IMG/VR virus record: IMGVR_UViG_3300046003_004989 | Coordinates: 80,481-144,480 of that record | Source of the DNA: a virus | Length of the DNA stretch: 64,000 bases | Strand: one strand, 5' to 3' | Part shown: positions 4,655 through 52,364 of the stretch, piece by piece | How the letters are laid out: every line of letters starts with the position of its first letter | Position numbering within the stretch: the first letter of the stretch is position 1 | Position numbers and translations under genes: made by a program | The notes under the pieces: generated by a model | Told to the model about the DNA's origin: nothing | Seen by the model: only the letters and a program-made list of their open reading frames with translations | Databases searched by the model: none

Positions 4655-4996
4655 TTATTTCTTGTAAGTAAAAGCATAGGAACCATCTCTAGTATAGCTC
4701 TTATTAATCTTGCTTTTATGTGAAGCGAAAACTTTAGCTACTAAGTCCTTAGCAAATTTTTCATCTTCTTTTAATTCGGAACCTAGCTTAGAAGTGCTAA
4801 CTACCAAAGTTTCTTTTTTGAAGCCAAATCCACCCACAGTATCTAATAAAATACCCTGAGATCCATCTAATTCAAATTTACTATGCTTCTTGCAAGCATC
4901 TACTAAGTCTTTCATAAAGTTCTCTAGGTCTGTGTATGAGCCTTCATTAATAGAAGATTCATTTAGGAACTCTTCAAATGTTGGAATGTGTTTCAT
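4655..4996 (-). CDS. Putative internal head protein with capsid-targeting N-terminus
   Basis: This 113-residue protein starts MKHIPTFEEFLNES, one of the clearest copies of the shared N-terminal tag. T4 internal proteins begin similarly and are cut by the prohead protease after (I/L)-x-E; here the cut would follow LNE at residue 13, and INE a few residues later is a second candidate. The rest is a small mixed alpha/beta domain rich in Lys and Ser (FELDGSQGILLDTVGGFGF, ending SYTRDGSYAFTYKK) that I do not recognise. It is followed by its own terminator. Packaging into the head is inferred from the tag alone. Confidence 0.8.
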   Translation of the reverse strand: MKHIPTFEEFLNESSINEGSYTDLENFMKDLVDACKKHSKFELDGSQGILLDTVGGFGFKKETLVVSTSKLGSELKEDEKFAKDLVAKVFASHKSKINKSYTRDGSYAFTYKK

Positions 4997-13616: not shown

Positions 13617-14138
13617 TTATATGATGATTATAACTCTTATTCTTTGACCTATAATAGCTCCACCGTACTTATAATCAATTTCAATATCTCCATTTGAAAC
13701 ATTTACTCTTGTATTATTTGATGGTACTCCAGTTGAAACTATAGAACCTTCAGTCATAATATGATTCCATTGTGTAGCACCGGCAATAAATGACCACATT
13801 GATATACTCATATCAGGAAACTGTGGAATATCATTACCTGCTAATCCACCTGCTGGAGGAGTTAGTATAATTCCAGGATTCAAACCATCAGGAGAAACAG
13901 CAGCTAATAATTCAGATCGAGTAATTGTCAAAGTTGTAGGTCCTAAAGGGAAAAACTCTTTTACGAATTTAATTGGAGAAGAAGTTGAACCTGCAGATCC
14001 AGCAGATCCAGCTGGTCCGGTTGGACCGATAGAACCTGTAGGACCGACTAGACCTAGGGTTGATATGTCTATCGGATTTCCGAAATAATCTACGAATCTA
14101 CCGTTTTCGATAAAAACTGCGTTGGAACTTGATGGCAT
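13617..14138 (-). CDS. Collagen-like virion surface protein candidate
   Basis: This 173-residue protein has a short run of Gly-x-y triplets, GLVGPTGSIGPTGPAGSAGSAGS, at about residues 29-51, then a beta-rich C-terminal domain with NNTRVNVSNGDIEIDYKYGG. Collagen-like repeats are common in phage fibres and surface proteins, where they form trimeric stalks. A late-type promoter motif inside the end of the preceding clamp-loader gene supports late expression and a structural role. The start codon overlaps the clamp-loader stop (ATTAATG). Confidence 0.75.
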   Translation of the reverse strand: MPSSSNAVFIENGRFVDYFGNPIDISTLGLVGPTGSIGPTGPAGSAGSAGSTSSPIKFVKEFFPLGPTTLTITRSELLAAVSPDGLNPGIILTPPAGGLAGNDIPQFPDMSISMWSFIAGATQWNHIMTEGSIVSTGVPSNNTRVNVSNGDIEIDYKYGGAIIGQRIRVIIII

Positions 14139-15928: not shown

Positions 15929-16390
15929 ATGGCATTTGTTCCTTATCATCAACATCTCCTCATTAAAGCTTACTGTAAGAATCCTATTCGTTCGGCAGCT
16001 GTATTAAATGAGTGGTTCAAGCAATTGGTAAACAAAGTCGGTATGGTTGTAGTTGCAGGTCCCACCTCAGTATACGTGGATGAACCTGGAAACGAAGGAC
16101 TAACCGGTACAGTAACCCTTGCAACTTCGCATGCATCGATCCATATTTGGGACGAATCTCAACCAGCAATGCTACAATTTGACATCTATTCTTGTAAGAA
16201 GTATGACATTCAAATTGTTATCGATCACTTAAATGAAATGGATTTAATTTCGTTCGATTGGATGACTATTGATAGAAATGACGGTATTGAAGTATCAGAT
16301 TTTGGTACAGGTATCGAATCTACTTACACGTCAACATCAGCTCTTAAAAGATTAGACAATCTAACAGAGTACCATCAAGATGAAGAGTAA
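15929..16390 (+). CDS. speD: SpeD-like pyruvoyl decarboxylase (AdoMet decarboxylase family)
   Basis: This 153-residue protein is the only convincing plus-strand gene. It matches the bacterial/archaeal S-adenosylmethionine decarboxylase fold. Ser67 in ATSHASIHIW is the expected self-cleavage residue that becomes the pyruvoyl group, with His72 and Cys89 (FDIYSCKKYD) as the conserved processing and catalytic residues; the residue before the cut is Thr instead of the common Glu. The family makes decarboxylated AdoMet for spermidine, but some members act on ornithine or arginine, so the substrate is open. It is divergent from the membrane gene upstream and ends in a two-way terminator facing a tagged gene. 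It is probably an auxiliary metabolic gene acquired separately. Confidence 0.85.
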   Translation: MAFVPYHQHLLIKAYCKNPIRSAAVLNEWFKQLVNKVGMVVVAGPTSVYVDEPGNEGLTGTVTLATSHASIHIWDESQPAMLQFDIYSCKKYDIQIVIDHLNEMDLISFDWMTIDRNDGIEVSDFGTGIESTYTSTSALKRLDNLTEYHQDEE

Positions 16391-16454: not shown

Positions 16455-16955
16455 TTAGCTAAATTTTGTCTCTCTAGCTTTTCTTTCTTTGATATTTGTT
16501 ACAGCCTTTTGAAGTTTCATAACTGTTTGTTTTGCTTGTAGCAAATCAATTTCTGCTTTAGTTACATCAGCGTCTTCAGGTTTTTCTTTCAGTTTTGTAT
16601 ATAGCTTAGCCATATTTTCTTTCATCTTAGCTTCTGCTTCTTTCTCTCTTCTCATTTTTTCCTCTTTAGTAGCATTTTCATTTACTGTTGATTCTGTAGT
16701 ATTAGTGAAAAAATGAGTAACTTGATCTAAATTTTCATTAGCAACTGAAATGTGATCTTCTGCCCAATCATGTCCATTTTTAAGTATTTCATCCATTTTA
16801 TTAGGATCCATAGCTAAAAGAGTTTCAACATTTTTCTTGATGCTTTTTAGATTTCCGAAAACCATGTAGTTTTCTGGTTTTCCTCCGATCGGAGCTTGTA
16901 AAGCTGCTTCATTAACGTATTCGTCGAATGAGTATATGTTTTTAAGTGTTTTCAT
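16455..16955 (-). CDS. Putative internal head protein, coiled coil, tagged N-terminus
   Basis: This 166-residue protein starts MKTLKNIYSFDEYVNEA, a clear copy of the shared tag with a predicted cut after VNE. The C-terminal ~75 residues are a long Lys/Glu-rich helix (EEKMRREKEAEAKMKENM, later ITNIKERKARETK-like sequence) likely to be coiled coil. Basic, helical internal proteins bind DNA inside T4 heads. It ends at the bidirectional terminator and starts 5 bases after the ATP-grasp gene, so both are probably made late and together. Confidence 0.8.
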   Translation of the reverse strand: MKTLKNIYSFDEYVNEAALQAPIGGKPENYMVFGNLKSIKKNVETLLAMDPNKMDEILKNGHDWAEDHISVANENLDQVTHFFTNTTESTVNENATKEEKMRREKEAEAKMKENMAKLYTKLKEKPEDADVTKAEIDLLQAKQTVMKLQKAVTNIKERKARETKFS

Positions 16956-16960
16956 TTTGA

Positions 16961-18454
16961 TTATTTCTTTTCTGATTCAAATTTGATACCTGCATGACTA
17001 ACTCCTTTAGATTTACCTGCATGATATTCGCCATCAAATGATGTTACCATGAAAGTTTTGTAAGGAGAAACTGAACAACCGATTCTTTCCATGAATTTAC
17101 GATTAGCAAGGAATTTAGTAGATTTTTCTTTTCTGTCTACTAGAGAAACGTGTACATCTTTATAAGTTTTACCACCGAAAGAAACTTCCATTTCGATGAT
17201 GGGACGATTATGAATATCATCACCTACTTCGGTATTTGCAAAGCCTATAACTTTTGATTCGAATGAATTATTACCAAGTTTCCACTTTACAGTTTTTTCA
17301 TCTTCAGATAATTTAACTTCGTCATATGTTAGAGAACAAGACATAGAGCCATTACCAGTGTCGAATTTAGCAACAATATCACCAATTCCAGGGATTGTGA
17401 TAACTTCTCGGAAACCAATAACTCTCTTAGAACGAATCCAATTTGCTTTATCTGATATGAAGTCTATTACATCAGAAACAACATCAATACCTGTAGCTTT
17501 TTTCAAACCGTGAGTTCCTGGAGAAGCATTAACTTCTAGAACATAGTTTTTACCGGTTTTCTTATCAACAATAATGTCAACTCCACACCAGTTACAACCT
17601 ACTGCTTTAGCTGATTCGATTGCTATTCTTTCTTGTTCAGGAGTAACTTTAGTTTTTTCTACGGTACCACCTAAAGAATAATTTGTACGGAAGTCTTTCT
17701 TAACTCGATTTCTTCTCATATATCCAAGAAGAACCGAATCAGTGTCTTGTGGAGTAGGAGAATTGAAACGTCTAGTTAAAACGTGAATACGTAAGTCATA
17801 TTCAGAGTCTATTTTTTCTTGAATAAGAGTTTCAATATTTGGTTGTACTTTCCAAAGAGTTTGAAGTACAGATTTCAAAGAAGCGAGAGAATCAACGATT
17901 GATACACCAATACCTTGAGATCCAGAAAGTAATTTGAGGACTACTGGAAATTGTCCACCAATTGCTTTAACAGCTCCATCAATCGATTCTTCGGAATCAA
18001 CAATTGCCATTTTAGGGACAGGAATACCTGCATCCATTAGAATTTTAGAAGTAACGTATTTGTTTTCACAAGCAAGAACTGATTCTAATGTGTTAACTAC
18101 GAAGAAGTTTGCATCTTCCAATTGAGAAACCAAATCTCTTGTGAAAGTACTTCTTACAATACCACGTCTAGTTAGGATTGCTGTGTCTTCAGAATCTATC
18201 TTAAATGGTTTTTTAGTTTTGTCAACTATTATGAATCCATTACCATCTTTGTCAGGTACTAGATTTGCAGTATTGATGTCAATTATACGGAATTGTACAC
18301 CTCTCTTTTTACATTCAGCTTCAACTGCTGGAACTGTGTAAGATTCTTCACTAATATTAGATAGAAGAACAAGTTTTACTTTTTGTTTCTTCGCTGAGGT
18401 TTTAACTGCCTCATTGATTACGAATTCATCAAAGTATGCTAGACGATTTTTCAT
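16961..18454 (-). CDS. RimK-like ATP-grasp ligase fused to a retropepsin-like (RimB-type) domain, tagged
   Basis: This 497-residue protein has three parts. Residues 1-16 are the tag MKNRLAYFDEFVINEA, with a predicted cut after INE. Residues ~25-340 are an ATP-grasp ligase like RimK: NKYVTSKILMDAGIPVP, the ATP-binding FPVVLKLLSGSQGIGV, YDLRIHVL, and the metal-binding GVDIIVDKKTGKNYVLEVNASPG. Residues ~345-497 resemble the RimB/ATP-dependent zinc-protease retropepsin family, with FDTGNGSMSCSL for the D-T-G-A-x-S active-site loop. RimK adds glutamates to ribosomal protein S6 and RimB is its partner. Here both functions are joined and tagged for the head, so the enzyme may be injected or may modify capsid proteins (inference). 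Confidence 0.85.
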   Translation of the reverse strand: MKNRLAYFDEFVINEAVKTSAKKQKVKLVLLSNISEESYTVPAVEAECKKRGVQFRIIDINTANLVPDKDGNGFIIVDKTKKPFKIDSEDTAILTRRGIVRSTFTRDLVSQLEDANFFVVNTLESVLACENKYVTSKILMDAGIPVPKMAIVDSEESIDGAVKAIGGQFPVVLKLLSGSQGIGVSIVDSLASLKSVLQTLWKVQPNIETLIQEKIDSEYDLRIHVLTRRFNSPTPQDTDSVLLGYMRRNRVKKDFRTNYSLGGTVEKTKVTPEQERIAIESAKAVGCNWCGVDIIVDKKTGKNYVLEVNASPGTHGLKKATGIDVVSDVIDFISDKANWIRSKRVIGFREVITIPGIGDIVAKFDTGNGSMSCSLTYDEVKLSEDEKTVKWKLGNNSFESKVIGFANTEVGDDIHNRPIIEMEVSFGGKTYKDVHVSLVDRKEKSTKFLANRKFMERIGCSVSPYKTFMVTSFDGEYHAGKSKGVSHAGIKFESEKK

Positions 18455-18938
18455 TTTTGCGTATATATTTTAGGAATGATTTCTGATTATCTATCATCAT
18501 CCTCTTGCAATTTTCTGTGAAAGCCAAAGATGATTCAATTACTCTCTGATCGATTCTTTCCGAACCTTTAAGATAGTATTTGAAGCACTTTTCGCAAGTA
18601 AAATTACTAGGAACGAATGTGTCAATTCTGGATTTTATTGGAGTAGTACAATAAGCACAATGCCAAGAAAAAATCCTATATGAATCTTTCACTGCATTAT
18701 ACTGTTGGACCTCTCTTGACTCTGGTTGAATCGAAGGACGGGTAGAATGAGATACACTTATCCTCCCATCTTCCAATCTAAAAATGGCCTGTAAGAACCT
18801 GTCATCATCAGCGTACTTCTTAATGACTGGATTTTCTTTCAAAACCTTTTGATATCTAGGAGCAAGACCTCTCAAAACAATTCCATGCTTTGTAGGAGTC
18901 TTGCCTTTATTTTGTCTTTTTATTTCAATCTTAGCCAT
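18429..18938 (-). CDS. Zinc-finger-like hypothetical protein, 169 aa
   Basis: Two Cys pairs, CAYCTTPIKS and CEKCFKYYL, are spaced about 30 residues apart like a zinc ribbon or treble-clef finger. The N-terminus is strongly basic (IEIKRQNKGKTPTKHG) and contains LRGLAPRYQKVLKENP. It overlaps the ATP-grasp gene by 26 bases and the coiled-coil gene by 8. A nucleic-acid-binding role is plausible; T4 has no equivalent known to me. Confidence 0.75.
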   Translation of the reverse strand: MAKIEIKRQNKGKTPTKHGIVLRGLAPRYQKVLKENPVIKKYADDDRFLQAIFRLEDGRISVSHSTRPSIQPESREVQQYNAVKDSYRIFSWHCAYCTTPIKSRIDTFVPSNFTCEKCFKYYLKGSERIDQRVIESSLAFTENCKRMMIDNQKSFLKYIRKNEKSSSIL

Positions 18939-20958
18939 AGATTAAGTAGTTGTCTATCTCAGAAGATAGTGCTTCTATAAGAACATCAATTGCCCAAACT
19001 TCATTTTCGAAAGATGTGAAAGATTCACCTAAAGCTTCTTTTCTTTTCTTAAGTTCAGCAATAGCTTTCTCTAGTTTTTCGACGTTAACAGAAGCTTGTT
19101 CTTTTCTTTTCGGATCTTCAATCTTAGAAACTGCTGCTTTAATTTTAGCAAGTTTATCTGCTTGAGGTTTTAAAACATCATCGATAGCTTTTATCTTCGC
19201 TTCTTTATCGCTAGGTTTTTCTTCCGATTGTTTGTTTTTCAACTTATCTTTTCTTTCAGCTTCAGCTTTTTTCTTATCTTGAGCTTTCTCGTACTCAACA
19301 GTTCCAGGAATTAAAGCTCCTTCAGAATCATCTTCTTTCTTATCTTCTTTCCCTTTAGGTTCTTCGGATTTTGAATCTTCTGTACTCTCAGATTCAGCTT
19401 TAGCCTTTTCTAATTTCTTAGGATCAGTTTCTTCTGCTGATTCTTCTCCACGTTTCTCAGCATCTTTCATCTGATCTTCGTGTTTCTTAAGAGCTTCTTG
19501 AGCTTTCTTAATTTGATCGTCAAGATTTTTCTTAGCTTCTGGACTAGGAATAAGTTTCATAAGTTGTTCAAGGAATTCAACTCTATTTCTGTTGCGTTCT
19601 TTCATAATGAATAACCAACAAAAGAAGTTTGCTTTCCCGAGTGCACCACCTACGAGTCCGTTCGTATTTTCTTTTTGAGATTTGATAGATTTATCAATAT
19701 CTTCGAGGAATGCTTCATATGATTTTTCAGCTTTATCAATTTGATCTCTTAAAGCTTGTTCTTTGTCTTGATCTTCAATTGCTTTATCTTCGGCAGATGT
19801 ATCATTATCTTCTTCTTTATAATCGTCAGGCATATCAGCTTCTTTAGCTTTATCAACAGCACTTTTAGCATCTGTTATTTGAGCCTTGATTACATCTTTT
19901 TTGTCTGGATCTGTTTCGTCTTTTAGAGAAGATTTAAGACTGTCAAGTTTGGACTTAGCAGCTTGAAGTTTTTCAAGATTAGCAGCTTTTGCTTTATCAT
20001 CTTCTGCTTTCTTATTAGTTTCTTTCTCTTTCTCTTTTCCGATTTCAGTATTGACTTCATCTTCTGCTTCTTTAGAATTTCCTTTAAGGTCATCTAATTC
20101 CTTTGCTAATACACCTTTATCGGATTTAGCACGTTCAATATTAGCCTTGATTTCTGCTTTCTTTTCAGAATCCTCTTCATTTTCATATTCATCTTGAAGC
20201 TTATGAATTTCTCTAATCTTAGTATGAAGTTCAGCTTTCTTGGTAATGATCGGCTCAAGATTTGCTAACCTTTCTTGTCTTTCATCGTCTTCTTCTGCTT
20301 TAGCTACTTTTTTATCGATAGCTAACTTTTCTTTATTCAATTCATCAATTGATTTAATGATTGCATCTGAAGCAATTTTATTATTAGGATCAGCCTTTTC
20401 GAGCTCTGTATTTTTAGCGATAATCTTGTCTTTAATCTCTTTCGCTTGAGCTCTTAATTTTTCAATCTCTTCATTTTTAGATTTACCTTTCTTTTCAGGT
20501 TTAGGCGCATCACCGTCTTTAGTTTCCGGTTTTTTAGTGTCATCACCTTTAAGACCAGGAGCTTCTAACTTTTGAGGTTTTATCATGTCCGGTTTCGGAG
20601 CTTCTTTAGGACCAGTAGAAGATGCATTTGAATCAGGAGCTTTAGAAGGAGCTTCTTTCTTTTTTACTACAGCTTTTTTATTAGTGTTTGTTGGAGTAGA
20701 TCTTTTCTGATTCTTATTCGGTTTTGATTGTCTTCTCTTTTGATTTTTGTTTGCTTCAACTAATTCAGCGTACATTGAATTTCCTTCAAAATCAAATTGA
20801 GATAGTTCTTCCATCAAATCTTCATATGAACAATCATCTGACATAGCAACCTCAAAATTTTCTGATATGCTAATCAAGAAATTCTCAAGGAGTTCTAAAA
20901 ATCTTTGTTCTTCGTATGATTCAAGAATGAACTGTTGTAGTTTGTTATTTTCCATCAT
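18931..20958 (-). CDS. Large, highly charged coiled-coil protein, possible internal head protein
   Basis: This 675-residue protein is dominated by Lys, Glu, Asp and Ala (for example KAESADPVLK-like and KAKAANLEKLQAAKSKL stretches) and is predicted to be long coiled coil with disordered linkers. The start MMENNKLQQFILESYEEQ is a weak form of the shared tag, with ILE as possible cleavage site. A short hydrophobic patch, GKANFFCWLFIM, lies near residue 445. The C-terminus returns to a compact helical part (VWAIDVLIEALSSEIDNYL). T4 prohead core proteins have comparable composition. It sits between the tagged block and the capsid genes. Confidence 0.75.
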   Translation of the reverse strand: MMENNKLQQFILESYEEQRFLELLENFLISISENFEVAMSDDCSYEDLMEELSQFDFEGNSMYAELVEANKNQKRRQSKPNKNQKRSTPTNTNKKAVVKKKEAPSKAPDSNASSTGPKEAPKPDMIKPQKLEAPGLKGDDTKKPETKDGDAPKPEKKGKSKNEEIEKLRAQAKEIKDKIIAKNTELEKADPNNKIASDAIIKSIDELNKEKLAIDKKVAKAEEDDERQERLANLEPIITKKAELHTKIREIHKLQDEYENEEDSEKKAEIKANIERAKSDKGVLAKELDDLKGNSKEAEDEVNTEIGKEKEKETNKKAEDDKAKAANLEKLQAAKSKLDSLKSSLKDETDPDKKDVIKAQITDAKSAVDKAKEADMPDDYKEEDNDTSAEDKAIEDQDKEQALRDQIDKAEKSYEAFLEDIDKSIKSQKENTNGLVGGALGKANFFCWLFIMKERNRNRVEFLEQLMKLIPSPEAKKNLDDQIKKAQEALKKHEDQMKDAEKRGEESAEETDPKKLEKAKAESESTEDSKSEEPKGKEDKKEDDSEGALIPGTVEYEKAQDKKKAEAERKDKLKNKQSEEKPSDKEAKIKAIDDVLKPQADKLAKIKAAVSKIEDPKRKEQASVNVEKLEKAIAELKKRKEALGESFTSFENEVWAIDVLIEALSSEIDNYLIYG

Positions 20959-20966
20959 ATTTAGTA

Positions 20967-21539
20967 TTATTCGTCTCCAGGTTTTGAAGGTTTTTCCATC
21001 TCAGGACCTTCAGACATCGAAGGTATTTGAGCAGACATTTTAGGCATTTCTTTACCTGTCATTTCAGCGTATTGAGTTTTCAATTTAGCTAATTCCCCAA
21101 ACTGATCAAGTTTCTTCATTTCTAAAGCTTGTTCTTGTTTCAGAGATGACTTGATTTTACCTCTTTTAAAAAGGAATGCAATATATAATGCTGTTAGTGC
21201 AGCACCTACAACTAACCCTTTTGTTATTTTTTTGGCAGTACCTACAGTTGCGTTAACTGCACTGTCCCATTCTTCTGAACCAGTATTTTCTAGATGTCCT
21301 CCAGCTTCATTAAGTGATTCATTAAACGATTCATATAGGTATGTTAAAGTTGATTCGTTAACGTCTTCAATTGATTTGATTGATTCATTAATTCCATCAC
21401 CACTATGCAGTAGAATGAAATTTACGATATCTTCAAATTCCTGTTTTGCAGGAGAGTGATTGTAGGCGTTACAAAGCTTTCTATATTCTTTCAATTCGTC
21501 TTGAATTCGAAGAACATTCATTGGCAATATAAAACTCAT
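20967..21539 (-). CDS. Membrane-anchored protein with several protease-like sites, 190 aa
   Basis: Residues 50-80 hold four Asn-Glu motifs in close succession: GINES, DVNES, SFNES and SLNEAGG. INE, VNE and LNE fit or nearly fit the gp21 cleavage rule. A transmembrane helix, GLVVGAALTALYIAFLF, lies at about residues 108-124, followed by a basic segment and a Met/Pro-rich tail. It is transcribed from a late-type promoter just after the capsid gene terminator. It is probably a virion or prohead protein cleaved during maturation; the function is unknown. Confidence 0.75.
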   Translation of the reverse strand: MSFILPMNVLRIQDELKEYRKLCNAYNHSPAKQEFEDIVNFILLHSGDGINESIKSIEDVNESTLTYLYESFNESLNEAGGHLENTGSEEWDSAVNATVGTAKKITKGLVVGAALTALYIAFLFKRGKIKSSLKQEQALEMKKLDQFGELAKLKTQYAEMTGKEMPKMSAQIPSMSEGPEMEKPSKPGDE

Positions 21540-21570: not shown

Positions 21571-21581
21571 AATTATATATC
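21571..21581 (-). promoter_or_regulatory. Late-type promoter upstream of the 20967-21539 gene
   Basis: GATATATAATT on the minus strand, 31 bases before the ATG and just downstream of the capsid-gene terminator, so it restarts transcription. Confidence 0.6.
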
Positions 21582-21599
21582 CTCAGCTTAAAGGTCGGC

Positions 21600-21627
21600 A
21601 AAAAAAAAGCTCTTCCGAAGAAGAGCT
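21600..21627 (-). terminator. Terminator of the major capsid gene
   Basis: Stem AGCTCTTC / GAAGAGCT with loop TTCG on the minus strand, then nine T. This is the strongest terminator in the window and sits directly after the capsid gene. Confidence 0.9.
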
Positions 21628-21651
21628 TTTGTATGGGTTGGTTGTATAAGA

Positions 21652-23262
21652 TTATACTAAAGAACCTAAGTTTGGATGCATGAAAACACCTGAAGTTAAG
21701 TACATAGTTTCTGGGTGGAAACCAGCTTCTACTAAAGCATAACGAGATTTAACCGCAACTTTAGGAGCCATAGTACCTTCAGCAATTGTTTGTACGCTTT
21801 CAGCCATTAAGTAAGGCATGAATACTAAACCAGGAGAATTACCATCACCTTTACGTCCTACCAAGAAACGTGTATCACCCCAAGCCATGTTAGGATCGTT
21901 GTAGATCGCTAGACCAGCAAGAGTACCGATTGGGTAAAGTGAACCAGACATTTGGTTGATAGTGTTTGCCATTGGAGCAGGTACGAAACCAGCAACGTCT
22001 TGAAGAGCAGAACATACTTGACCGTTAGTTACAACGAAAGTAGCTGGTCCACGACGACCTCTAATAGCAATAAGGTTAGCGATAGCTAATACCTTAGACA
22101 TGATTTTTCTTTGACGAGTTGACATGTTCTCTGAAGCAGAGTTAAGTACCTCATTTTTAACAGCTGTAGCACCTGTAAGTGTAGAGTTGTATAAGTAAGA
22201 TCCGAAGTTAGTCAACGGGTTAGTTGTAGTACCAGAAACTAATACGTCAGTAGCACCAATATTCAAGAAGAAGTTGATTGCTTGTGACTTAATTACGTTA
22301 GCGTGGTTAGTTTCACCTAAGAAGAATAATCTAGTTAAGATGTTTTTGTTGATTGATTGAGTCAATTCGTTAATCAATACTGATTCTACTTGAGATACAG
22401 CATCTACTCCGAATTGTTTCAAATCTTGAACTTGCTCACGAGTTACAGCAGCAGCAACTTGGAAAGTTTTAGCTTCTACTGATTTGTTGAACAATGAAAG
22501 GTTCATGATGTTATCCATCGTACCTTCACCAGTTTCTCTTGAGTAAGGATCGTTGATTGTTTCGTTTGTTGGATAAGAAGCAGCAGCAAGAGCATTACCA
22601 GAGAATCCAGTGATGTGATCTTCAAGAGCTTTTACTAATTCAACAGAAGTAAATGATGTTGCAGTAACACCACCGATAAGAATACCAGAGATTGCAGCAG
22701 CAACAGTTGCAGTACCTGTAGTACCAGCTACTTTGAAGATTGGGTAACCATCAAGACGTGATCCACCGATGTAAGTAAATGTGTAACCAGCAGATGAACC
22801 AACAGCACCAGCAGTAAAGCCAGGTGATGGAGTAGCACCGTAGTTTAATTTAATTAAAAGTGGAGCATTACCTAAAGTACCAGCAGTTTTACCACCACCG
22901 TATACGAAGTCTAAATAAGTAAGAACACCCATTGGACCAGGCATTGGTACAACTGGAACTAAGTCAAGACCAATTGTTTGAGCAGCAACTTGCATAGCAA
23001 GAGGCAATAATGTGTGTGCTTTGTCACCTGAACCAGTCGTTTGGCTATCAAAACCAGACTGAGTAGTCGGAGAATCAGGGAAACGGGTAGCACCCATACC
23101 GTTAACAGCGCCTAATTGAGCTAAGTTGTTGTTTTCGTACAATTCATGGTAATGACAGTATTTAGACATCCACTCAACTTTAGAACGCTCAGTGATTCCA
23201 GTATTAGACTCTACGATAGAAGCCCATTTACCAAAAATTTCTTGTTCGTTAATAAGATACAT
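21652..23262 (-). CDS. 23: Major capsid protein (gp23-like)
   Basis: This 536-residue protein follows the protease-scaffold gene as in T4. Length is close to T4 gp23 (521). The N-terminal ~43 residues would be removed by the prohead protease: HELYE ends in L-Y-E at residue 43, fitting (I/L)-x-E. The mature start, NNNLAQLGAVNGMG, is followed by a QSGFDSQTTGSGD segment that also occurs in the DUF3008-like protein at 51297-51719. Gly/Thr/Ala-rich strands in residues 130-240 fit an inserted surface domain. Its own late promoter with an ~80-base leader and a strong terminator suggest high late expression. Confidence 0.9.
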   Translation of the reverse strand: MYLINEQEIFGKWASIVESNTGITERSKVEWMSKYCHYHELYENNNLAQLGAVNGMGATRFPDSPTTQSGFDSQTTGSGDKAHTLLPLAMQVAAQTIGLDLVPVVPMPGPMGVLTYLDFVYGGGKTAGTLGNAPLLIKLNYGATPSPGFTAGAVGSSAGYTFTYIGGSRLDGYPIFKVAGTTGTATVAAAISGILIGGVTATSFTSVELVKALEDHITGFSGNALAAASYPTNETINDPYSRETGEGTMDNIMNLSLFNKSVEAKTFQVAAAVTREQVQDLKQFGVDAVSQVESVLINELTQSINKNILTRLFFLGETNHANVIKSQAINFFLNIGATDVLVSGTTTNPLTNFGSYLYNSTLTGATAVKNEVLNSASENMSTRQRKIMSKVLAIANLIAIRGRRGPATFVVTNGQVCSALQDVAGFVPAPMANTINQMSGSLYPIGTLAGLAIYNDPNMAWGDTRFLVGRKGDGNSPGLVFMPYLMAESVQTIAEGTMAPKVAVKSRYALVEAGFHPETMYLTSGVFMHPNLGSLV

Positions 23263-23428: not shown

Positions 23429-25333
23429 TTAGTAGCCTCTACCGAAACGTTTTTTAAGACCTGCATGAACAGCTTCCATATAAGCGTCTGGAGTTTGATA
23501 TGCTGCTGTTTCATTAATAGGAGCAGAAGCATTTTCATTGATAGGTGCATCTAATTTAGAAGGACGTAAATCTCTTGTAGACCAGAAGTTATCAACTGCA
23601 TATTGATTATCTAAAACTTTCACAGAAGCTTGAGCTTTGATAGCATTCTTTTGTGATTCGTTAAGACCATTCCAAGATTCTTTGTATTTAGCTGGCATAT
23701 TAGTCAACCAATTGAAAGATGGAGCAGCAATAATAAATGCTGATTCATAAAGTCTTTCAGCATCTACTGAACCATAGAATTTATTGTTTTCAAAGATAGT
23801 GATTACTTCGTCTTTCTTTTCAGGTGTTAAAGAAGCAAATTGATTTCTTTTAGTTTCAGTTAAGAAGTTTAAGAAATGTAATTTGTTAGAGTTATTAGCT
23901 TCATTTACTGCTTTAGCTGATTCTAAAATAGAATTCAATTTATCAGTAAGATTTTTCTCATAATTATCAGAACCTGCATCAATAGTAACATCGATTGCGG
24001 CTGGAGTAGCAGTAGGTTCAGAACCTTCATTTACTGGTTCAGCATTTGCATCAATAACAACTTTACCTTCATTGATTTCTTTAACGATGTGATTTAAGTA
24101 ACCGCTTAAGTTTTCTGTTTGTTCTTTCAAATATTCAGTGTATTCAATGATAGATGATGTACCTTCAACGATATAATCGTTATGAGAAATTACGTTATCT
24201 AATTGTTCATTGATATGATTTTGATAAGACCAACGGTTATTAGATTCGTTAGCTACATATTTAGTGAATTCAATACCTTGATCAGCTTTTTCAGCTACAA
24301 CTTTAGTATATTCAATTCCTTCATCAGCTTTCTTAGCTACAACTTTAGTGTATTCGATTAAGTGGTCAACTGATTCAGCAAGTTTTTCTGAATAGTTAAT
24401 TCCTTGATTAGATCTTTCACCAACAAGTTCAGCGTAATTTTTAACTTTCTCTAGGTTTTCGATGATGTAGTCATTATGTGAAATAAGACCATCAACAGAC
24501 TCAGCAAGTTTTCCAATGTATTCTTGAATTTGGTTAACTCTTTTAGCTGTTTCTTCAGTGTACTTAACAAGTCCTTCATTTACAGAAGTATTGTTATTTG
24601 CATTTTGGGATTCAGTTAAAGCTTTTTTAAGATTGTCAACCTCATTTTTTACATGTTTTGAGTACTCATTAAAGTCTTCAACTGTAATGTATTTTTTAGA
24701 ATCCATTTCGTTGATTTTTGTTTCTTTGTTTGATTCAGTATATTTATCTTCTTCCGTAGATTTGATAGTAGACTCATCCAATGTGAAGTCAGTTTCATAG
24801 ATAGAAATTAGGCTATCTTCACCGAAACCGAAAGATTCATTTACTCTTTTTAATTCAGCATTAGCAAATCCGGGATCTGCTACTAAATCGTAAGTAAACA
24901 TTTTTTTGATCTTAACATGTCCATTAGATTCAACAACACCTGCTGCTCTAGATGAAATATGAAGTGGAACTCCAGCATCAACTAATGCCATAGCTTGTTT
25001 ACCTGCATCTGTATTAAGAAGTCTAATACGACCAGTTACTTTTTTAGATTTTGGATCGTATGAAAGGTCCTCAATGATATGAGAAGCATTTTTTAGGGAG
25101 ATGTCAAAAGACTTAGGATGGTCAAGTTCACCAAGAAGTTTATTACCTTGCAATTTAGCTTGGAGTTCTTGGATGTGAGGCATTAACTCTTTTTCGTCGT
25201 AGATTCTATTGTTTTTGTTTCTAACGCCGATTTCAGTAAATGTACCTTCTAGCACATACTTATCTCCGTCTTTAGAAGATTGAAGATTCCCTTCGGATCT
25301 TTCTAATACGAGTAGATATTTGTTATTGCTCAT
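23429..25333 (-). CDS. 21: Prohead protease fused to scaffold (gp21+gp22-like)
   Basis: This 634-residue protein combines two functions that are separate genes in T4. Residues 1-165 are a gp21-type serine protease: His72 in GELDHP, Ser127/128 in HISSRAAG and Asp153 in LVADPGF fit the S80-family catalytic set. From about 205 the protein is long coiled coil with near-repeats of about 14 residues (EYTKVVAKKADEGI, EYTKVVAEKADQGI, EFTKYV), as expected for a scaffold core. Candidate self-cleavage sites include VNES at about 164, KINEMD near 206, and APINENASAPINETA near the C-terminus. Fusion would place the protease inside the core at a fixed ratio. It lies between portal and capsid genes, the T4 position. 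Confidence 0.9.
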   Translation of the reverse strand: MSNNKYLLVLERSEGNLQSSKDGDKYVLEGTFTEIGVRNKNNRIYDEKELMPHIQELQAKLQGNKLLGELDHPKSFDISLKNASHIIEDLSYDPKSKKVTGRIRLLNTDAGKQAMALVDAGVPLHISSRAAGVVESNGHVKIKKMFTYDLVADPGFANAELKRVNESFGFGEDSLISIYETDFTLDESTIKSTEEDKYTESNKETKINEMDSKKYITVEDFNEYSKHVKNEVDNLKKALTESQNANNNTSVNEGLVKYTEETAKRVNQIQEYIGKLAESVDGLISHNDYIIENLEKVKNYAELVGERSNQGINYSEKLAESVDHLIEYTKVVAKKADEGIEYTKVVAEKADQGIEFTKYVANESNNRWSYQNHINEQLDNVISHNDYIVEGTSSIIEYTEYLKEQTENLSGYLNHIVKEINEGKVVIDANAEPVNEGSEPTATPAAIDVTIDAGSDNYEKNLTDKLNSILESAKAVNEANNSNKLHFLNFLTETKRNQFASLTPEKKDEVITIFENNKFYGSVDAERLYESAFIIAAPSFNWLTNMPAKYKESWNGLNESQKNAIKAQASVKVLDNQYAVDNFWSTRDLRPSKLDAPINENASAPINETAAYQTPDAYMEAVHAGLKKRFGRGY

Positions 25334-28288: not shown

Positions 28289-28642
28289 TTATTCTTCGTC
28301 TTCGTCTTCAGTAGAAGCACCTTCTTGAACTTGTGCGATTCCACCTTTACCGATCAAAGCAGAAATTTCTTCTTCTGTGAATTGAACGTCATTAGCTTTG
28401 TCTTCACCATTAAAGATATAAACACCATTAGTAACACCTTGATAGATCATATCTGTATGTTTGTCAGCATCAACAGTTAAAACGTACTCTTTACCAGGAG
28501 TAAGATCTGCAACAGTTGCAAGAGCTCCACCTACTGGATCAGCATCCGTTGTGTTAGTTGGGTTGAATCCGTCAGCATCATTAGCTTCTTGAACGTTATA
28601 ATGTTCGTTTACGAATTCATCAAATGATAGTAAATTTTTCAT
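28289..28642 (-). CDS. Tagged internal-protein candidate with a small beta domain
   Basis: This 117-residue acidic protein starts MKNLLSFDEFVNEHY, a clear shared tag with a predicted cut after VNE. Residues ~47-100 (LTPGKEYVLT, MIYQGVTNGVYIFNGEDK, FTEEEISALIGKGGI) form a small beta domain that recurs at the C-terminus of the 554-residue protein at 31775-33439. The tail is almost pure Asp/Glu. A late-type motif lies just upstream. Confidence 0.8.
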   Translation of the reverse strand: MKNLLSFDEFVNEHYNVQEANDADGFNPTNTTDADPVGGALATVADLTPGKEYVLTVDADKHTDMIYQGVTNGVYIFNGEDKANDVQFTEEEISALIGKGGIAQVQEGASTEDEDEE

Positions 28643-28660
28643 TTTAGTAATTTTTCTTTT

Positions 28661-28673
28661 TTATATTTATCTC
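28661..28673 (-). promoter_or_regulatory. Late-type promoter of the 28289-28642 gene
   Basis: GAGATAAATATAA on the minus strand, 18 bases before the ATG, next to a short CTCAG/CTGAG hairpin. It contains ATAAATA. Confidence 0.5.
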
Positions 28674-28693
28674 AGAACATACTGAGAGGTTTG

Positions 28694-29509
28694 TTAGTAT
28701 ACTGGATGACTACCAGCAGAAGCTGAATCAGTCGAATTCGTATATCCTTTAGTGTTTACATTTTGATCAGGTCCAGATGTAGGAGTGAGAGTACCCGTAC
28801 CTACCATCGTAGCTTCTTCCTCTAATTTCTTACCTTGGTCATCTGTTAGAGGTTTATCTCTAAGAACTTTGTTTATTTCTACAAAGAATTGAGATTCTTC
28901 TGGTGTTAGATTAGCTTTAACATATTTGGAAATATCTCTCATAATTTTTGAGCGCATATTATTGTTAGTTTTAATCTTTTCGTAAGATGAACCTTTCTTA
29001 AAAGTACCGTCAATGTAAGGATATTTTTGAAGGTCCGCTAGTAGAGAATTTAATTTTGCGTCTGCATTAAATTTAGCAGCTATATTTTCTGCTTCATCTC
29101 TCATTTTAGCATAAGCTTTATCAGATTTTATCTTTGAAAGTTTAGCAACAATGGATTGTCTCCAATTAGAAAAAATATAACCTGCAATAATCAGACCACC
29201 TCCAGCTAAAGCAGCTCCAGCTTTAATTAGATCTGCTGCAAGAATACCTTTTGTTACTTCCCACCATTGCAAATCCTCATTAATCATTTCATCAACTACA
29301 ATTTCTTGAGATTCACATATATGAATTGTTCCTTTATTATCACGGAATTGAACTCTTCCGTTTGAAGTTTCTTTTGATACGATTACACCAGAAAATCCAT
29401 CCAAAGATGTAACATAATCACCGACTTCTAATTGACATCCGTCAAATGAATATACAGGACTAGGATAATTTTCGTTTAGGTATTGATCGTAAGATGGTAG
29501 ATTTTTCAT
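28694..29509 (-). CDS. Tagged protein with SH3-like domain and membrane helix
   Basis: This 271-residue protein starts MKNLPSYDQYLNENYPS, with a predicted cut after LNE; MINED at about residue 76 is a second candidate. Residues ~20-70 look like a small SH3/KOW barrel (LEVGDYVTSLDGFSGVIVSK, GRVQFRDNKGTIH). A transmembrane helix, AGAALAGGGLIIAGYIF, lies near residue 100, then a basic helical region. The tail is Ser/Thr/Gly-rich. It belongs to a run of tagged genes, and its start codon overlaps the stop of the one before by a single base. Confidence 0.78.
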   Translation of the reverse strand: MKNLPSYDQYLNENYPSPVYSFDGCQLEVGDYVTSLDGFSGVIVSKETSNGRVQFRDNKGTIHICESQEIVVDEMINEDLQWWEVTKGILAADLIKAGAALAGGGLIIAGYIFSNWRQSIVAKLSKIKSDKAYAKMRDEAENIAAKFNADAKLNSLLADLQKYPYIDGTFKKGSSYEKIKTNNNMRSKIMRDISKYVKANLTPEESQFFVEINKVLRDKPLTDDQGKKLEEEATMVGTGTLTPTSGPDQNVNTKGYTNSTDSASAGSHPVY

Positions 29510-30672
29510 TACTCTTCTTCGTTTTCTTTTTGTTTATCTTCTGGTTTGTCTTCTTCGTCGTGCTTATCGTCATGTTTATCATCACCTTTGGTGACCATTC
29601 CAATAGCTGTTTCACAAATACCTACAACCCAAAGACCTTTTGCAGTATATTTCATACACATTAAAATAACTCCAATTCCTGGAAGTGCTGTCATTATCAT
29701 AGTTCCAATAGCAGAAACGCCCATTTCTTTTATTAAACTTGTAACTCCAGCTTTAATAGCATATCCAGTAACAAGTGCAAATACTGCTCCAACTATAGTG
29801 AATTCAAATGGACCAGGAGCTTTAGCTACTTTTGAAAGGAATGACGAGATTCCAGAAAGACCCTTATTGGCAGCTGAACCAGCGGCATGTTCAGTAGAAT
29901 GTAAAGCTTTAAATGGTTGAAACTCTGCAACTTTATGTACTAAAGCTGAAAGGAAAGGAATTTTAATTCCTCCATGATCAGAACTTTCTTTTAGGTATTG
30001 AACAAAGTCATAACTTTCAACGATCAAATCAGAAGCAGCTAAATAAAGAGCTGTTTCTAACATTTCCGAATAACCTTCATTTGTAGAGGCAGCTTGATTT
30101 AAACCTGCACCCATTTCACTTGAGATACCACCAAACCATTTAGCAGTTGCTTTTGCCATAGATCCGAGATTTTTAACCTCTTCTTTTGCGACATCAGCTT
30201 TACCTTTAAATTTTCCTTTAGCAGCTTCTGTTATTTTTTCTTTCGATTTAGCGTAACCAGATTCTACCTGTCCTTTAATATAGTCCCAAGCTTTTTGAAT
30301 GAAAGCTTTAACGATACCGAGGATTTTTTGTATTAAAGCAGAAACAGATCCACCAATTTTCATGATAGCTTCTTGAGTACCTGAAAGATATTCTTTACCC
30401 TTTTCTTTTGCTACTTGTATAGCAGCTTTAGCTTTAGCTTTTAATTTATCTGCAATCGATTCTTCATTGAGAGTACCTTCAAAGATCGAATCCCATTGTT
30501 CAGTTTCAATGATTGCTTCAGATAGAAGACGTTCTTCTTCTGAAATATGTGGAGATTTAGATAGAGCCTCAAATAGATATTTTTTAGCGTCTATTGATTG
30601 AGATTTGAATTCAGAATAAATTCTTTGAGCTTCAAATATCATATACTCTTCGTAAGATAATATTCTTTTCAT
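29509..30672 (-). CDS. Tagged protein with several hydrophobic helices, 387 aa
   Basis: The start MKRILSYEEYMIFEAQ is a variant tag (possible cut after IFE); GTLNEES near residue 69 is a second candidate. The first half is Lys/Ala-rich amphipathic helix (ADKLKAKAKAAIQVAKEKG). The second half contains strongly hydrophobic segments, FTIVGAVFALVTGYAI and IGTMIMTALPGIGVILMC, plus VVGICETAIGMV. The C-terminus is Asp/Lys/Glu-rich with a DDKHDDKHDE repeat. A head protein able to enter membranes could help DNA cross the host envelope; this is inference. The gene abuts its neighbours. Confidence 0.78.
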   Translation of the reverse strand: MKRILSYEEYMIFEAQRIYSEFKSQSIDAKKYLFEALSKSPHISEEERLLSEAIIETEQWDSIFEGTLNEESIADKLKAKAKAAIQVAKEKGKEYLSGTQEAIMKIGGSVSALIQKILGIVKAFIQKAWDYIKGQVESGYAKSKEKITEAAKGKFKGKADVAKEEVKNLGSMAKATAKWFGGISSEMGAGLNQAASTNEGYSEMLETALYLAASDLIVESYDFVQYLKESSDHGGIKIPFLSALVHKVAEFQPFKALHSTEHAAGSAANKGLSGISSFLSKVAKAPGPFEFTIVGAVFALVTGYAIKAGVTSLIKEMGVSAIGTMIMTALPGIGVILMCMKYTAKGLWVVGICETAIGMVTKGDDKHDDKHDEEDKPEDKQKENEEE

Positions 30673-31538: not shown

Positions 31539-31763
31539 TTAGAACTTCACATCTAAAAATTTCTTTTCTACCATGTCTGATTTTCCATTCGATAGGATAA
31601 CTTCAACTTTGTCGTTGTTACCACCTTTTGTATACTGAAGAGCATCAACTTTCACAGTATCACCTTTTTTAAGGGATTTTGTAGAAGCATTAACTGTTGC
31701 ATTGACATGAGTGTCAGAGGTCTTTGCTTCATTTAGCCATTCTTCAAATGTAGTAAGTTTCAT
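31539..31763 (-). CDS. Tagged small SH3-like protein, 74 aa
   Basis: Starts MKLTTFEEWLNEAKTSD, one of the clearest tags, with a predicted cut after LNE leaving about 62 residues. The rest looks like a five-stranded barrel: LKKGDTVKVDALQYTKGG, then KVEVILSNGKSDMVEKKFL. Such a small basic domain could bind DNA in the head. Confidence 0.8.
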   Translation of the reverse strand: MKLTTFEEWLNEAKTSDTHVNATVNASTKSLKKGDTVKVDALQYTKGGNNDKVEVILSNGKSDMVEKKFLDVKF

Positions 31764-33470: not shown

Positions 33471-33480
33471 ATTATTTATA
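33471..33480 (-). promoter_or_regulatory. T4-type late promoter TATAAATA overlapping a stop codon
   Basis: TATAAATAAT on the minus strand contains the exact T4 late promoter octamer. It covers the last codons and the TAA stop of the gene at 33472-34152 and lies 31 bases before the next ATG. Confidence 0.6.
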
Positions 33481-34152
33481 CACGTAACAAGGAATTGATT
33501 TCCCATATAGTGGAATAAGTTCTTCTGAATGTGGTGCTTCGATATAATCGATCATAGTACCATCAAACATAGGTCTTCCTGTTTGATCGTGTGCAAAATA
33601 ACCTTTAGTTCCTATCTGCCAAATTGGAGTAGAACCAGAAGTAATGACTGCTCTATAAACTTTATAACCTACTTCCCATATTTCGATAGTAGAGTTAACT
33701 TGATATGTGTCTCTTAAAGAGAAGTACTTATTTTGACCTGTTTTAAGATTCAATGAACCGCAAGGTAAAATAGCAGCACCTCTTCCTTGATATCCACCAG
33801 TGAATTTTCTAGTAGTTTTGAATTGTTCTCCAGAAGATCTTTTAGAACCTGGAAGAACTTTTACTTGAGTTGCTTTACCAGCAACGTCCATTCCAAGAGC
33901 TTCTGCTCTAGAAAAGAAAGCTTTAGTTACTTCATGGTCAGCTCCAAGAATTTGATCAGCTGCAACTCCACGGTCATAAGCTTTATCTTTATCAGTGATT
34001 AACTTACACATAGTATTCGCTAATGTAAGCATTTTGTTTGTATCACCTTTAGATTTGGTTACGATATCTTGAACTCTTTGAACATCTTTTTGAGATGCTT
34101 CAAGAACTAGACTCTCTAGGATAAAATCGTCGTAAGAAGGTATATTGTTCAT
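33472..34152 (-). CDS. Tagged internal-protein candidate, 226 aa
   Basis: Starts MNNIPSYDDFILESLVLEA, with ILE as predicted cleavage site (I-L-E fits the rule exactly). The N-terminal half is helical; the C-terminal half is beta-rich and aromatic (FTGGYQGRGAAILPCGSLNL, STIEIWEVGYKVYRAVI, TKGYFAHDQTGRPMFDG) and looks like a compact folded domain, perhaps enzymatic. No family is recognised. Confidence 0.8.
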   Translation of the reverse strand: MNNIPSYDDFILESLVLEASQKDVQRVQDIVTKSKGDTNKMLTLANTMCKLITDKDKAYDRGVAADQILGADHEVTKAFFSRAEALGMDVAGKATQVKVLPGSKRSSGEQFKTTRKFTGGYQGRGAAILPCGSLNLKTGQNKYFSLRDTYQVNSTIEIWEVGYKVYRAVITSGSTPIWQIGTKGYFAHDQTGRPMFDGTMIDYIEAPHSEELIPLYGKSIPCYVYK

Positions 34153-34161
34153 GTTGTTATA

Positions 34162-34932
34162 TTATTTAGCAGCACCAACCCCTTTTAATTGAGGATATTT
34201 CTTAAGAACGGCAGCAACTACTTCTTTTTTAATGTCTTTGTATTGTGGCCATGTAGCCCAAACTAATGCAGTTTTTGCATGTTTTTCGTCATGTATTGGC
34301 CAAGATCTTTTATCAGGGAATATGAAGTCTTCTGGTTTTAATTTTTCTTTCTCTGCTGGAGAAAGACCTTCAAGAACTTTATGATAATCTAAAACGCTTT
34401 CAAGAACTTCATCTTCAATACCTTCGATATCGAATTCTAAAGATTCAGAAAGAATTTTCTTGATTTTCTCTAATTTTTGAGCATCTTTTAAAGCCGATTG
34501 AAGAGCTTGTACCTTAGCTGATTCTTCATCTTCTTCAGGTTTTTTAGTTTCTTCTTCGTCTTTTTCTGGCTCAGTTTCACCTTTCTTAAGCTTATCTAAT
34601 GCAGCTTTAACATCTACATCTGGTTTTGCTTTTGAAGGATCTATACCTTTTGCTAGATCTGATGCGTCTGCTTTAAGGATATCGTCAGCTTCATCTAATG
34701 ATTGAAGTGCTTCGAAGTCAATTGATTCACCTAAAAATACTTTTGACATAACTCGAACTTTACGTTCTTCGTCAATGCCTATAGTAGTTAAAAATAGATA
34801 AATTTGTTCAGGTGTTTTTCCTTCAGAAGCTAATTTGCTAACGATAGGGAAAAGAGATCCTGCACCGTAGTATGAATACTGTCCAGCTAGATTCTCGTTC
34901 ACAAATTCTGTGTATGATTTAATAAGTCCCAT
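34162..34932 (-). CDS. Tagged internal-protein candidate, 256 aa
   Basis: Starts MGLIKSYTEFVNENLAGQ, with a predicted cut after VNE. The middle is a charged low-complexity linker (EPEKDEEETKKPEEDEE). The C-terminal ~50 residues (FIFPDKRSWPIHDEKHAKTA, then LVWATWPQYKDIKKEVVAA) match a small helical domain common in phage head and tail proteins, with a P-D-x-R-x-x-P-I-x-D core. A late-type motif precedes it. Confidence 0.8.
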   Translation of the reverse strand: MGLIKSYTEFVNENLAGQYSYYGAGSLFPIVSKLASEGKTPEQIYLFLTTIGIDEERKVRVMSKVFLGESIDFEALQSLDEADDILKADASDLAKGIDPSKAKPDVDVKAALDKLKKGETEPEKDEEETKKPEEDEESAKVQALQSALKDAQKLEKIKKILSESLEFDIEGIEDEVLESVLDYHKVLEGLSPAEKEKLKPEDFIFPDKRSWPIHDEKHAKTALVWATWPQYKDIKKEVVAAVLKKYPQLKGVGAAK

Positions 34933-51296: not shown

Positions 51297-51719
51297 TTAA
51301 AAGGCTGATCTTAGTTCTTTACTTCCTTGAATAAAGTCTTGAAAAGACTGAAAAGAAGATTTTTTCTTTTTTCTCGGTTGGCCTTTAACCAATGAGTAAG
51401 GTATGTCACCAGAACCAGTTTTTTGACTAGCAAAACCTGATTGAGAGCCCGGATTTCCTGGAAGTGCAGGAGAACCCATTCCATTGACATTAGAAACTGT
51501 TGCCATTCCACCGTCTTCATTAACTTCGTCTTTTGAGACAGGAAGGCCTTCATGTTTTGTTTTAGCAAAGTCTTCTAAGTCCTTTTTAGACATAGAGTCT
51601 GCTAGGTCTTGGATTTGCTTTCTATATTCTGGATTGATATCAGAAGCTTTCAAATCACCCATTTTGAGTGCATAGGCTTGACCCATTAATCTTTGTTGTG
51701 ATTGTGAAACTGCTGGCAT
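51297..51719 (-). CDS. DUF3008-like protein sharing a segment with the major capsid protein
   Basis: Residues 1-60 (MPAVSQSQQRLMGQAYALK, then MSKKDLEDFAKTKHEGLP) match the DUF3008 helical family often found in phages. After a candidate cleavage site, DEVNE at about residue 68, follows NVNGMG ... QSGFASQKTGSGD, which matches the start of the mature capsid protein (AVNGMG ... QSGFDSQTTGSGD) over about 27 residues. The C-terminus is very basic (KGQPRKKKKSSF). It may bind where the capsid N-terminus binds, or be processed with it. Confidence 0.8.
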   Translation of the reverse strand: MPAVSQSQQRLMGQAYALKMGDLKASDINPEYRKQIQDLADSMSKKDLEDFAKTKHEGLPVSKDEVNEDGGMATVSNVNGMGSPALPGNPGSQSGFASQKTGSGDIPYSLVKGQPRKKKKSSFQSFQDFIQGSKELRSAF

Positions 51720-52363: not shown

Positions 52364-52364
52364 T

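What the first reader, a model, noticed from the sequence alone, without database searches (positions are those of the whole stretch)
16961..18454. RimK-like ligase fused to a retropepsin-like domain and tagged for the head
RimK and RimB are separate proteins in bacteria and modify ribosomal protein S6 tails. Here an ATP-grasp domain with intact ATP and metal motifs and a DTG-type retropepsin-like domain are one protein, preceded by the capsid-targeting peptide. If injected, it could add or remove amino acids on host ribosomes at once, or modify capsid proteins in the prohead. The combination of domains and delivery signal is unusual as far as I know.
Basis: partly seen in the sequence, partly recalled or inferred. 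Interest (0 to 1): 0.8.

Follow-up and report, generated by a model that had tools for sequence, protein, structure and literature searches.

The report
Head-tagged phage glutamate ligase–protease fusion
A large T4-like phage carries one protein that joins an enzyme predicted to add glutamate tails to other proteins, an enzyme predicted to trim such tails, and an N-terminal tag like the one T4 uses to pack proteins into its head, so the phage may deliver a protein-modifying tool with its DNA, although the target is unknown.

Summary
Window 16961–18454 (−) is a conserved 497-aa protein with three parts. (1) A head-targeting leader ending in VINE|A, which fits the T4 prohead-protease site L/I-x-E. 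(2) A complete RimK-family alpha-L-glutamate ligase with intact ATP/metal residues; the best PDB fold matches are RimK. (3) A RimB/RloA-like retropepsin domain (FDTGN). The leader is real: 28 of 218 ORFs in this genome carry such leaders against about 1.6–2.4 expected by shuffling, and the same pattern finds T4 IPII and IPIII. The ligase–protease (K–B) fusion forms at least 65 clusters in viral contigs; 41 keep the leader motif (0.6 expected), mostly away from head genes.

Host S6 as target is not supported (S6-specific model 96 bits, cut-off 331). The protease motif is DTGN, not DTGA.

Best explanation: a packaged, probably injected glutamylase with a built-in trimmer, like T4 Alt in delivery but with RimK/RimB chemistry. 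A homologue in phage YerA41 was found in virions by LC-MS/MS, though carry-over is possible. Substrate, activity and injection are untested. I found no earlier description of a head-tagged K–B fusion in the papers searched.

The parts
16961..18454 (-). whole gene: leader + RimK-family glutamate ligase + RimB/RloA-like retropepsin (497 aa)
18410..18454 (-). head-targeting leader, residues 1-15 (MKNRLAYFDEFVINE), predicted prohead-protease cut after E15 (E|A); disordered in the model
   Evidence: NEA (14-16) invariant in 17 homologues; leader enrichment; L/I-X-E rule and Glu-Ala cut of T4 gp21; pLDDT <50 for residues 1-23
18071..18379 (-). pre-ATP-grasp (RimK N-terminal) domain, about residues 26-128; R96 = RimK R64
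   Evidence: TIGR00768 residues 28-333
17456..18067 (-). ATP-grasp domain, residues 130-333; invariant K132, K174, E213, R222, N258, D293, E307, N309
17045..17422 (-). RimB/RloA-like retropepsin domain, residues 345-470; catalytic-type FDTGN with D365 (codon 17360-17362)
16455..16955 (-). neighbouring small leader-bearing protein (166 aa, MKTLKNIYSFDEYVNEA...), 5 bases downstream
   Evidence: no family match
18429..18938 (-). upstream 169-aa protein with four paired Cys (zinc-ribbon-like by eye), overlapping the start of the fusion gene by 26 bases; syntenic in close relatives
   Evidence: (phrog_35685, unknown)
18931..20958 (-). Lys/Glu-rich 675-aa protein, probable head scaffold/core (position and composition only)
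   Evidence: no family match
20967..21539 (-). 190-aa protein between the putative scaffold and the major capsid protein
21652..23262 (-). major capsid protein (Gp23 family)
   Evidence: PF07068 6.9e-37; phrog_138
23429..25333 (-). prohead maturation protease (gp21 type), the likely remover of the leader
   Evidence: phrog_207 9.7e-41, residues 16-381 of 634

Best explanation
The protein is a cargo of the phage head. It is made together with head-core genes and drawn into the prohead by its N-terminal leader, which is clipped at VINE|A by the gp21-type protease. It is then ejected with the DNA into the next cell. There its RimK-type ATP-grasp domain, using the new host's ATP and glutamate, adds alpha-linked glutamates to the C-terminus of a target protein, and its RimB/RloA-type retropepsin domain trims the tail, so one molecule is both writer and length-setter. 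Shown by computation: domain content, fold, intact catalytic residues, the leader, conservation, and the presence of capsid protein and prohead protease in the same genome. Inferred: packaging (strong), leader cleavage, injection, poly-glutamate chemistry. Unknown: the target. Host translation factors are only one option, and S6 is not favoured by the sequence. Estimated likelihood per step: RimK-type glutamate ligase about 0.85, poly-Glu-directed protease about 0.65, packaged in the head about 0.75, acts in the newly infected host about 0.55, target is S6 about 0.15.
For: Ligase: TIGR00768 above cut-off. Top PDB fold hits are RimK, including the RimK-RpsF complex (TM 0.84-0.88 by target). Residues that bind ADP in Pseudomonas RimK (K141, E178, I180, F210, N213) and the metal-site residues correspond to invariant K174, E213, I215, F255, N258, D293, E307, N309; poly-Glu contacts R64, R189 and N262 correspond to invariant R96, R222, N309. 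Protease: profile 9e-10 to RloA2, fold matches to RloA and HIV protease; the poly-Glu contacts K46, R114, R137 of RloA align with K363, R417, R441. Leader: 16 of 218 ORFs with the strict pattern against 0.2 expected; looser pattern 28 against 1.6-2.4; the same pattern recovers T4 ipII and ipIII. Family: 41 of 65 clusters have the leader in the first 32 residues against 0.6 by shuffle, 0 of 879 segments elsewhere in the same proteins and 1 of 84 cellular RimK-type ORFs; 24 of 37 with full upstream flanks and no head genes nearby still have it. Melnitz phages lost the protease domain but kept a leader. Virion detection: YerA41 g112 'ribosomal protein modification protein*' is an LC-MS/MS particle-associated protein (PMC7354516). 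In T4, leader-tagged proteins and Alt are packaged and ejected (PMC9026906).
Against: No experiment on this phage. YerA41's homologue lacks a recognisable leader, is a middle gene, and its particle list also holds DNA polymerases and ribonucleotide reductase, so carry-over is possible. Twenty-four of 65 clusters lack the leader under the pattern used. In Mosig the leader is the only one in the genome, which chance alone would give once. RimK poly-Glu contacts R8 and S68 are not conserved and S14 is Thr. The protease has DTGN where RloA and retroviral enzymes have DTGA. In marine relatives the gene lies among replication genes (RegA-like, DNA polymerase), not head genes.
Confidence: 0.5

Rival explanations
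1. The enzyme works during head assembly, not after injection: the leader docks it to the prohead core, where it adds or trims glutamates on head or core proteins of the phage.
For: In the window and its close relatives the gene lies directly downstream of, and overlaps, head-region genes next to the capsid gene. The leader is shared with many other presumed core proteins of the genome. Several phage proteins end in acidic tails (28289-28642 ...TEDEDEE; 29509-30672 ...NEEE).
Against: The leader persists in distant relatives where the gene is not near head genes. No predicted protein of this genome has five or more consecutive Glu for the protease to act on. In T4 the proteins with such leaders stay in the head and many are ejected.
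Confidence: 0.22
2. An ordinary cytoplasmic phage enzyme made during infection that modifies host or phage proteins, with the N-terminal peptide serving another role or being a relic.
For: Cyanophage RimK proteins have no leader at all. In marine relatives the gene sits in the replication module after a RegA-like gene. YerA41's gene is expressed in the middle phase and its leader is not recognisable.
Against: NEA is invariant across 17 homologues while the linker behind it varies freely. The same leader stands on at least 15 other proteins of the genome.
Confidence: 0.2
3. The ligase makes free poly-glutamate or glutamylates a small molecule, as MptN, CofF and free poly-Glu synthesis by RimK do, rather than modifying a protein.
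For: MptN scores second to the general RimK family (131 bits, below its cut-off of 350) and above the S6-ligase model (96 bits). Free poly-alpha-glutamate synthesis by RimK stimulated by RimB is published (PMC11957791).
Against: No reason to package such an activity is evident; all equivalog models are well below cut-off.
Confidence: 0.06
4. Specifically host ribosomal protein S6 is poly-glutamylated at entry to bias translation to phage messages.
For: Closest solved structures are RimK, including the RimK-RpsF complex; RimK and RimB act together on S6 in Pseudomonas (PMC7343187).
Against: S6-ligase equivalog model 96 bits against cut-off 331; two of the seven poly-Glu contact residues differ; host unknown.
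Confidence: 0.15

Closest known systems
RimBK hybrid of bacteria (e.g. Desulfotalea psychrophila DP2392; PMC11957791)
   Same: RimK-type ligase and RimB-type retropepsin in one polypeptide; the hybrid's protease is active on poly-glutamylated S6
   Different: Opposite domain order (B-K there, K-B here), separate branch in the ligase tree, and no head-targeting leader
RimK (S6--L-glutamate ligase) and RimB of Pseudomonas / E. coli
   Same: Fold, ATP and metal residues, three poly-Glu contacts in RimK; DTG and poly-Glu contacts in RimB
   Different: Separate proteins there; S6 specificity not shown here; DTGN motif here
RloA/RloA2 retropepsins (9g58, 9g59; PMC12239564)
   Same: Best sequence and fold match of the C-terminal domain; conserved Lys/Arg contacts for poly-Glu
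   Different: RloA are secreted single-domain enzymes with DTGA
T4 internal proteins IPI-III and Alt
   Same: N-terminal propeptide ending in an L/I-x-E site; probable packaging and ejection
   Different: Cargo chemistry: ADP-ribosylation for Alt, glutamate ligation/trimming predicted here
Homologues in Pelagibacter phage Mosig, Yersinia phages YerA41 and GN1, Methylophilales phages Melnitz
   Same: Same family; Mosig and YerA41 have the K-B fusion; Mosig and Melnitz have leader-like N-termini
   Different: 29-35% identical; Melnitz lacks the protease domain; YerA41 lacks a clear leader

Membership tests
RimK-family alpha-L-glutamate ligases (TIGR00768, PF08443) | Profile match above curated cut-off over the whole domain | tested here: met
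   TIGR00768 155.4 bits (cut-off 143.4), residues 28-333; PF08443 118.9 (21)
RimK-family alpha-L-glutamate ligases (TIGR00768, PF08443) | Intact ATP and metal residues | tested here: met
   K132, K174, E213, N258, D293, E307, N309 invariant in A2 and A3
RimK-family alpha-L-glutamate ligases (TIGR00768, PF08443) | ATP-dependent glutamate ligation | not testable with these tools
   needs purified protein
Ribosomal protein S6--L-glutamate ligase (RimK proper, NF007764) | Match above the equivalog cut-off | tested here: not met
   96.3 bits against 331
Ribosomal protein S6--L-glutamate ligase (RimK proper, NF007764) | Poly-Glu contact residues S7, R8, S14, R64, S68, R189, N262 | tested here: inconclusive
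   R64, R189, N262 conserved and invariant; S7 Ser in the window protein; S14 Thr; R8 and S68 changed
RimB/RloA retropepsins (PF05618) | Curated Pfam cut-off for the window sequence | tested here: not met
   16.9 bits against 27; but 8 of 15 homologues match at E<0.01, best 1.1e-6
RimB/RloA retropepsins (PF05618) | Profile and fold similarity | tested here: met
   9g59 9e-10 by profile; 9g59/2pma/9g58 best by Foldseek, TM 0.73-0.79 by target
RimB/RloA retropepsins (PF05618) | DTG followed by Ala | tested here: not met
   D-T-G conserved but followed by Asn (FDTGN) in nearly all clusters
RimB/RloA retropepsins (PF05618) | Lys/Arg poly-Glu contacts (RloA K46, R114, R137) | tested here: met
   K363, R417, R441 by alignment and spacing
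RimB/RloA retropepsins (PF05618) | Active dimer | not testable with these tools
   only monomer models available
Bacterial RimBK hybrid | Order RimB then RimK | tested here: not met
   K-B order here; bacterial B-K hybrids (L127, L129, L130, L133, L135, L136, L167) form their own clade, support 0.998
T4-type internal head proteins (capsid-targeting propeptide) | N-terminal [FY]xx[FYW][ILV]..E leader with L/I-x-E|A site | tested here: met
T4-type internal head proteins (capsid-targeting propeptide) | gp21-type prohead protease in the genome | tested here: met
   23429-25333, phrog_207 9.7e-41
T4-type internal head proteins (capsid-targeting propeptide) | Presence in the virion, leader removed | not testable with these tools
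   only indirect: YerA41 homologue in LC-MS/MS list

The most novel reading that the evidence does not exclude
A widespread class of virion-delivered glutamylation effectors: T4-like and jumbo phages inject a writer plus length-setter of poly-glutamate tails that re-programmes a host protein, possibly of the translation machinery, in the first minutes of infection.
Probability: 0.35. Interest if true: 0.82.

Novelty: new variant of a known kind. Interest (0 to 1): 0.6.

Why it matters
Phage RimK-like proteins and bacterial RimB–RimK hybrids are known separately. What appears new is a ligase–protease fusion in the phage order that carries a head-targeting leader and is conserved over at least 65 clusters of phages. 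If it is injected, protein poly-glutamylation joins ADP-ribosylation as a modification delivered inside the head, and it can be tested directly: look for the protein in virions and for a mass shift on host proteins after infection.

Tried and rejected
Chance leader: rejected by shuffles, internal segments and cellular RimK controls. Hitch-hiking of the leader with head-gene context: rejected because most leader-bearing homologues have no detectable head genes nearby. Descent from the bacterial RimBK hybrid: not supported, reversed order and separate clades, though the support at the phage clade's base is weak, 0.34. Anti-phage defence annotation: no PADLOC match. Encoded poly-Glu substrates in the phage proteome: none with five or more consecutive Glu. 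Annotation of the other leader-bearing proteins gave almost nothing: one cytidylyltransferase-like protein, one weak 'internal head protein' hit. The older review of amidoligases (Iyer 2009) is not held, so whether it mentions this phage family could not be checked.

Full report
What was checked. The ORF at 16961–18454 (−) encodes 497 aa from an ATG with no internal stop. The window is part of a 144,480-base virus record. Its nearest deposited relatives by capsid protein and terminase are an uncultured 462-kb phage (LR756500) and, further off, the Lak megaphages and other large T4-like phages, at about 30–56% identity. The genome has a Gp23-type capsid protein, a gp21-type prohead protease, a portal and a clamp loader, so it is T4-like in head building.

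Ligase domain. Residues 28–333 match the RimK family of alpha-L-glutamate ligases above NCBI's curated cut-off (155.4 against 143.4 bits) and Pfam RimK at 2.6e-34. The structure model (mean pLDDT 79.6) matches RimK crystal structures first, including the RimK–RpsF complex, with TM 0.84–0.88 by target length, ahead of ArgX/LysX and D-Ala ligases. Mapped on the alignment to Pseudomonas RimK and the published contacts (PMC10092738), the ADP contacts K141, E178, I180, F210, N213 are K174, E213, I215, F255, N258, and the metal-side residues (assigned from general knowledge of ATP-grasp enzymes) are D293, E307, N309. All are invariant in the family alignments. Of the seven poly-Glu contacts, R64, R189 and N262 are kept as invariant R96, R222, N309; R8 and S68 are not. 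So it is a RimK-family ligase. But the S6-specific model scores only 96 bits against a cut-off of 331, and S6 should not be named as the target.

Protease domain. Pfam PF05618 is below its cut-off for this one sequence. A profile of 13 homologous C-terminal domains hits the solved retropepsins RloA2 and RloA at 9e-10 and 9e-8, and a separate model of the domain (pLDDT 83.6) matches RloA2, a Legionella relative and RloA, then HIV protease. D365-T-G is conserved; the next residue is Asn in nearly all clusters instead of Ala. The basic residues that bind poly-glutamate in RloA (K46, R114, R137; PMC12239564) align with K363, R417 and R441. A poly-glutamate-trimming role is therefore plausible but unproven, and the DTGN motif leaves a doubt about activity.

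Leader. The first 16 residues, MKNRLAYFDEFVINEA, look like T4's capsid-targeting propeptide (IPII and IPIII begin MKTYQEFIAEA). T4's prohead protease cuts after Glu in L/I-X-E (PMC9026906); VINE|A fits. A strict pattern finds 16 of 218 ORFs in this genome against 0.2 by shuffling (maximum 3 in 1000); a looser one finds 28 against 1.6–2.4. On T4 the same looser pattern picks ipII and ipIII among four hits. The N-E-A triplet is invariant in 17 homologues while the nine residues behind it vary freely.

Family. A profile scan of viral contigs gave 581 confirmed candidates, of which 80 loci were kept. Fusion proteins from the fetched loci form 65 clusters at 90% identity; 41 carry the leader motif in their first 32 residues against 0.6 expected, 0 of 879 other segments of the same proteins do, and 1 of 84 cellular RimK-type ORFs does. 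In close relatives the gene sits between the head genes and the clamp loader gp44; in marine relatives it lies between a RegA-like gene and DNA polymerase. Most leader-bearing homologues have no head genes nearby (24 of 37 with full upstream flanks), so the leader is not a by-product of location. The phage K–B fusion and the bacterial B–K hybrid lie in separate branches of the ligase tree, although the base of the phage group is weakly supported. Melnitz phages, nested in the phage group, lack the protease but have a leader, which suggests that the ligase is the essential cargo.

Virion evidence. The YerA41 homologue (annotated 'structural protein', with K–B fusion) corresponds to g112, listed as particle-associated by LC-MS/MS (PMC7354516). 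The correspondence is by gene order (g109/g110 ribonucleotide reductase, then g112). That list also contains polymerases and ribonucleotide reductase, the gene is middle-expressed, and this homologue has no clear leader; so it is supporting, not decisive.

Mechanism and rivals. The likeliest course is packaging through the leader, clipping by the gp21-type protease, ejection with DNA, and glutamylation of a host protein with self-trimming. Modelling of RimB in Pseudomonas has it narrowing tail lengths to about four residues (PMC7343187); having both activities in one chain would do the same for every modified molecule. Rivals are action on phage head proteins during assembly, an ordinary cytoplasmic role, and poly-glutamate or small-molecule synthesis. 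None is excluded.

Known or new. Phage RimK-like proteins are annotated as 'ribosomal protein S6 glutaminyl transferase' in cyanophages and PHROGs. In the papers searched I found no description of a head-tagged K–B fusion; the library is open-access only, and the relevant 2009 amidoligase review was not available. I rate it a new variant of a known kind.

Noticed in passing
record positions about 30.8-43.5 kb (outside the window) and window 4655-4996, 16455-16955, 28289-29509, 31539-31763, 33472-34932, 51719-52709, 62786-63798: About 25 further ORFs carry the same head-targeting leader; about 14 sit in one cluster and almost all lack family matches: a large, unstudied set of presumed head cargo proteins.
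   Followed up: partly
window 15929-16390 (+): S-adenosylmethionine decarboxylase (PF02675, 5e-13) on the opposite strand, flanked by minus-strand genes; kept in several close relatives.
   Followed up: no
L023:7434-8408 and L065:7373-8341: A second RimK-like ATP-grasp gene (322-324 aa) directly overlaps or follows the K-B fusion gene in these two phages.
   Followed up: partly
window 23429-25333: The prohead protease ORF has 634 aa but matches the family only over residues 16-381; about 250 extra C-terminal residues are unexplained.
   Followed up: no
window 21572-21630 (-): A strong terminator-like hairpin (11 pairs, T run) followed at once by a promoter-like TTGCCG-18-TATAAT lies between the capsid gene and the unit that ends with the fusion gene, suggesting a separate transcription unit (consensus matches only; their number in the region is no higher than in shuffles).
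   Followed up: no
L094:2705-4870, L110:2172-5886, L029:9170-14491: In marine relatives the fusion gene is inserted between a RegA-like translational repressor gene and the DNA polymerase gene of the T4 replication module.
   Followed up: partly
window 13617-14138 (-): Short protein with a collagen-like Gly-X-Y stretch (GPTGSIGPTGPAGSAGSAG) beside the clamp-loader gene.
   Followed up: no
L003, L004, L008, L012 and others, upstream of the fusion gene: The putative scaffold protein varies greatly in length between close relatives (about 365 to 1070 aa by ORF length) at low identity (27-37%).
   Followed up: no
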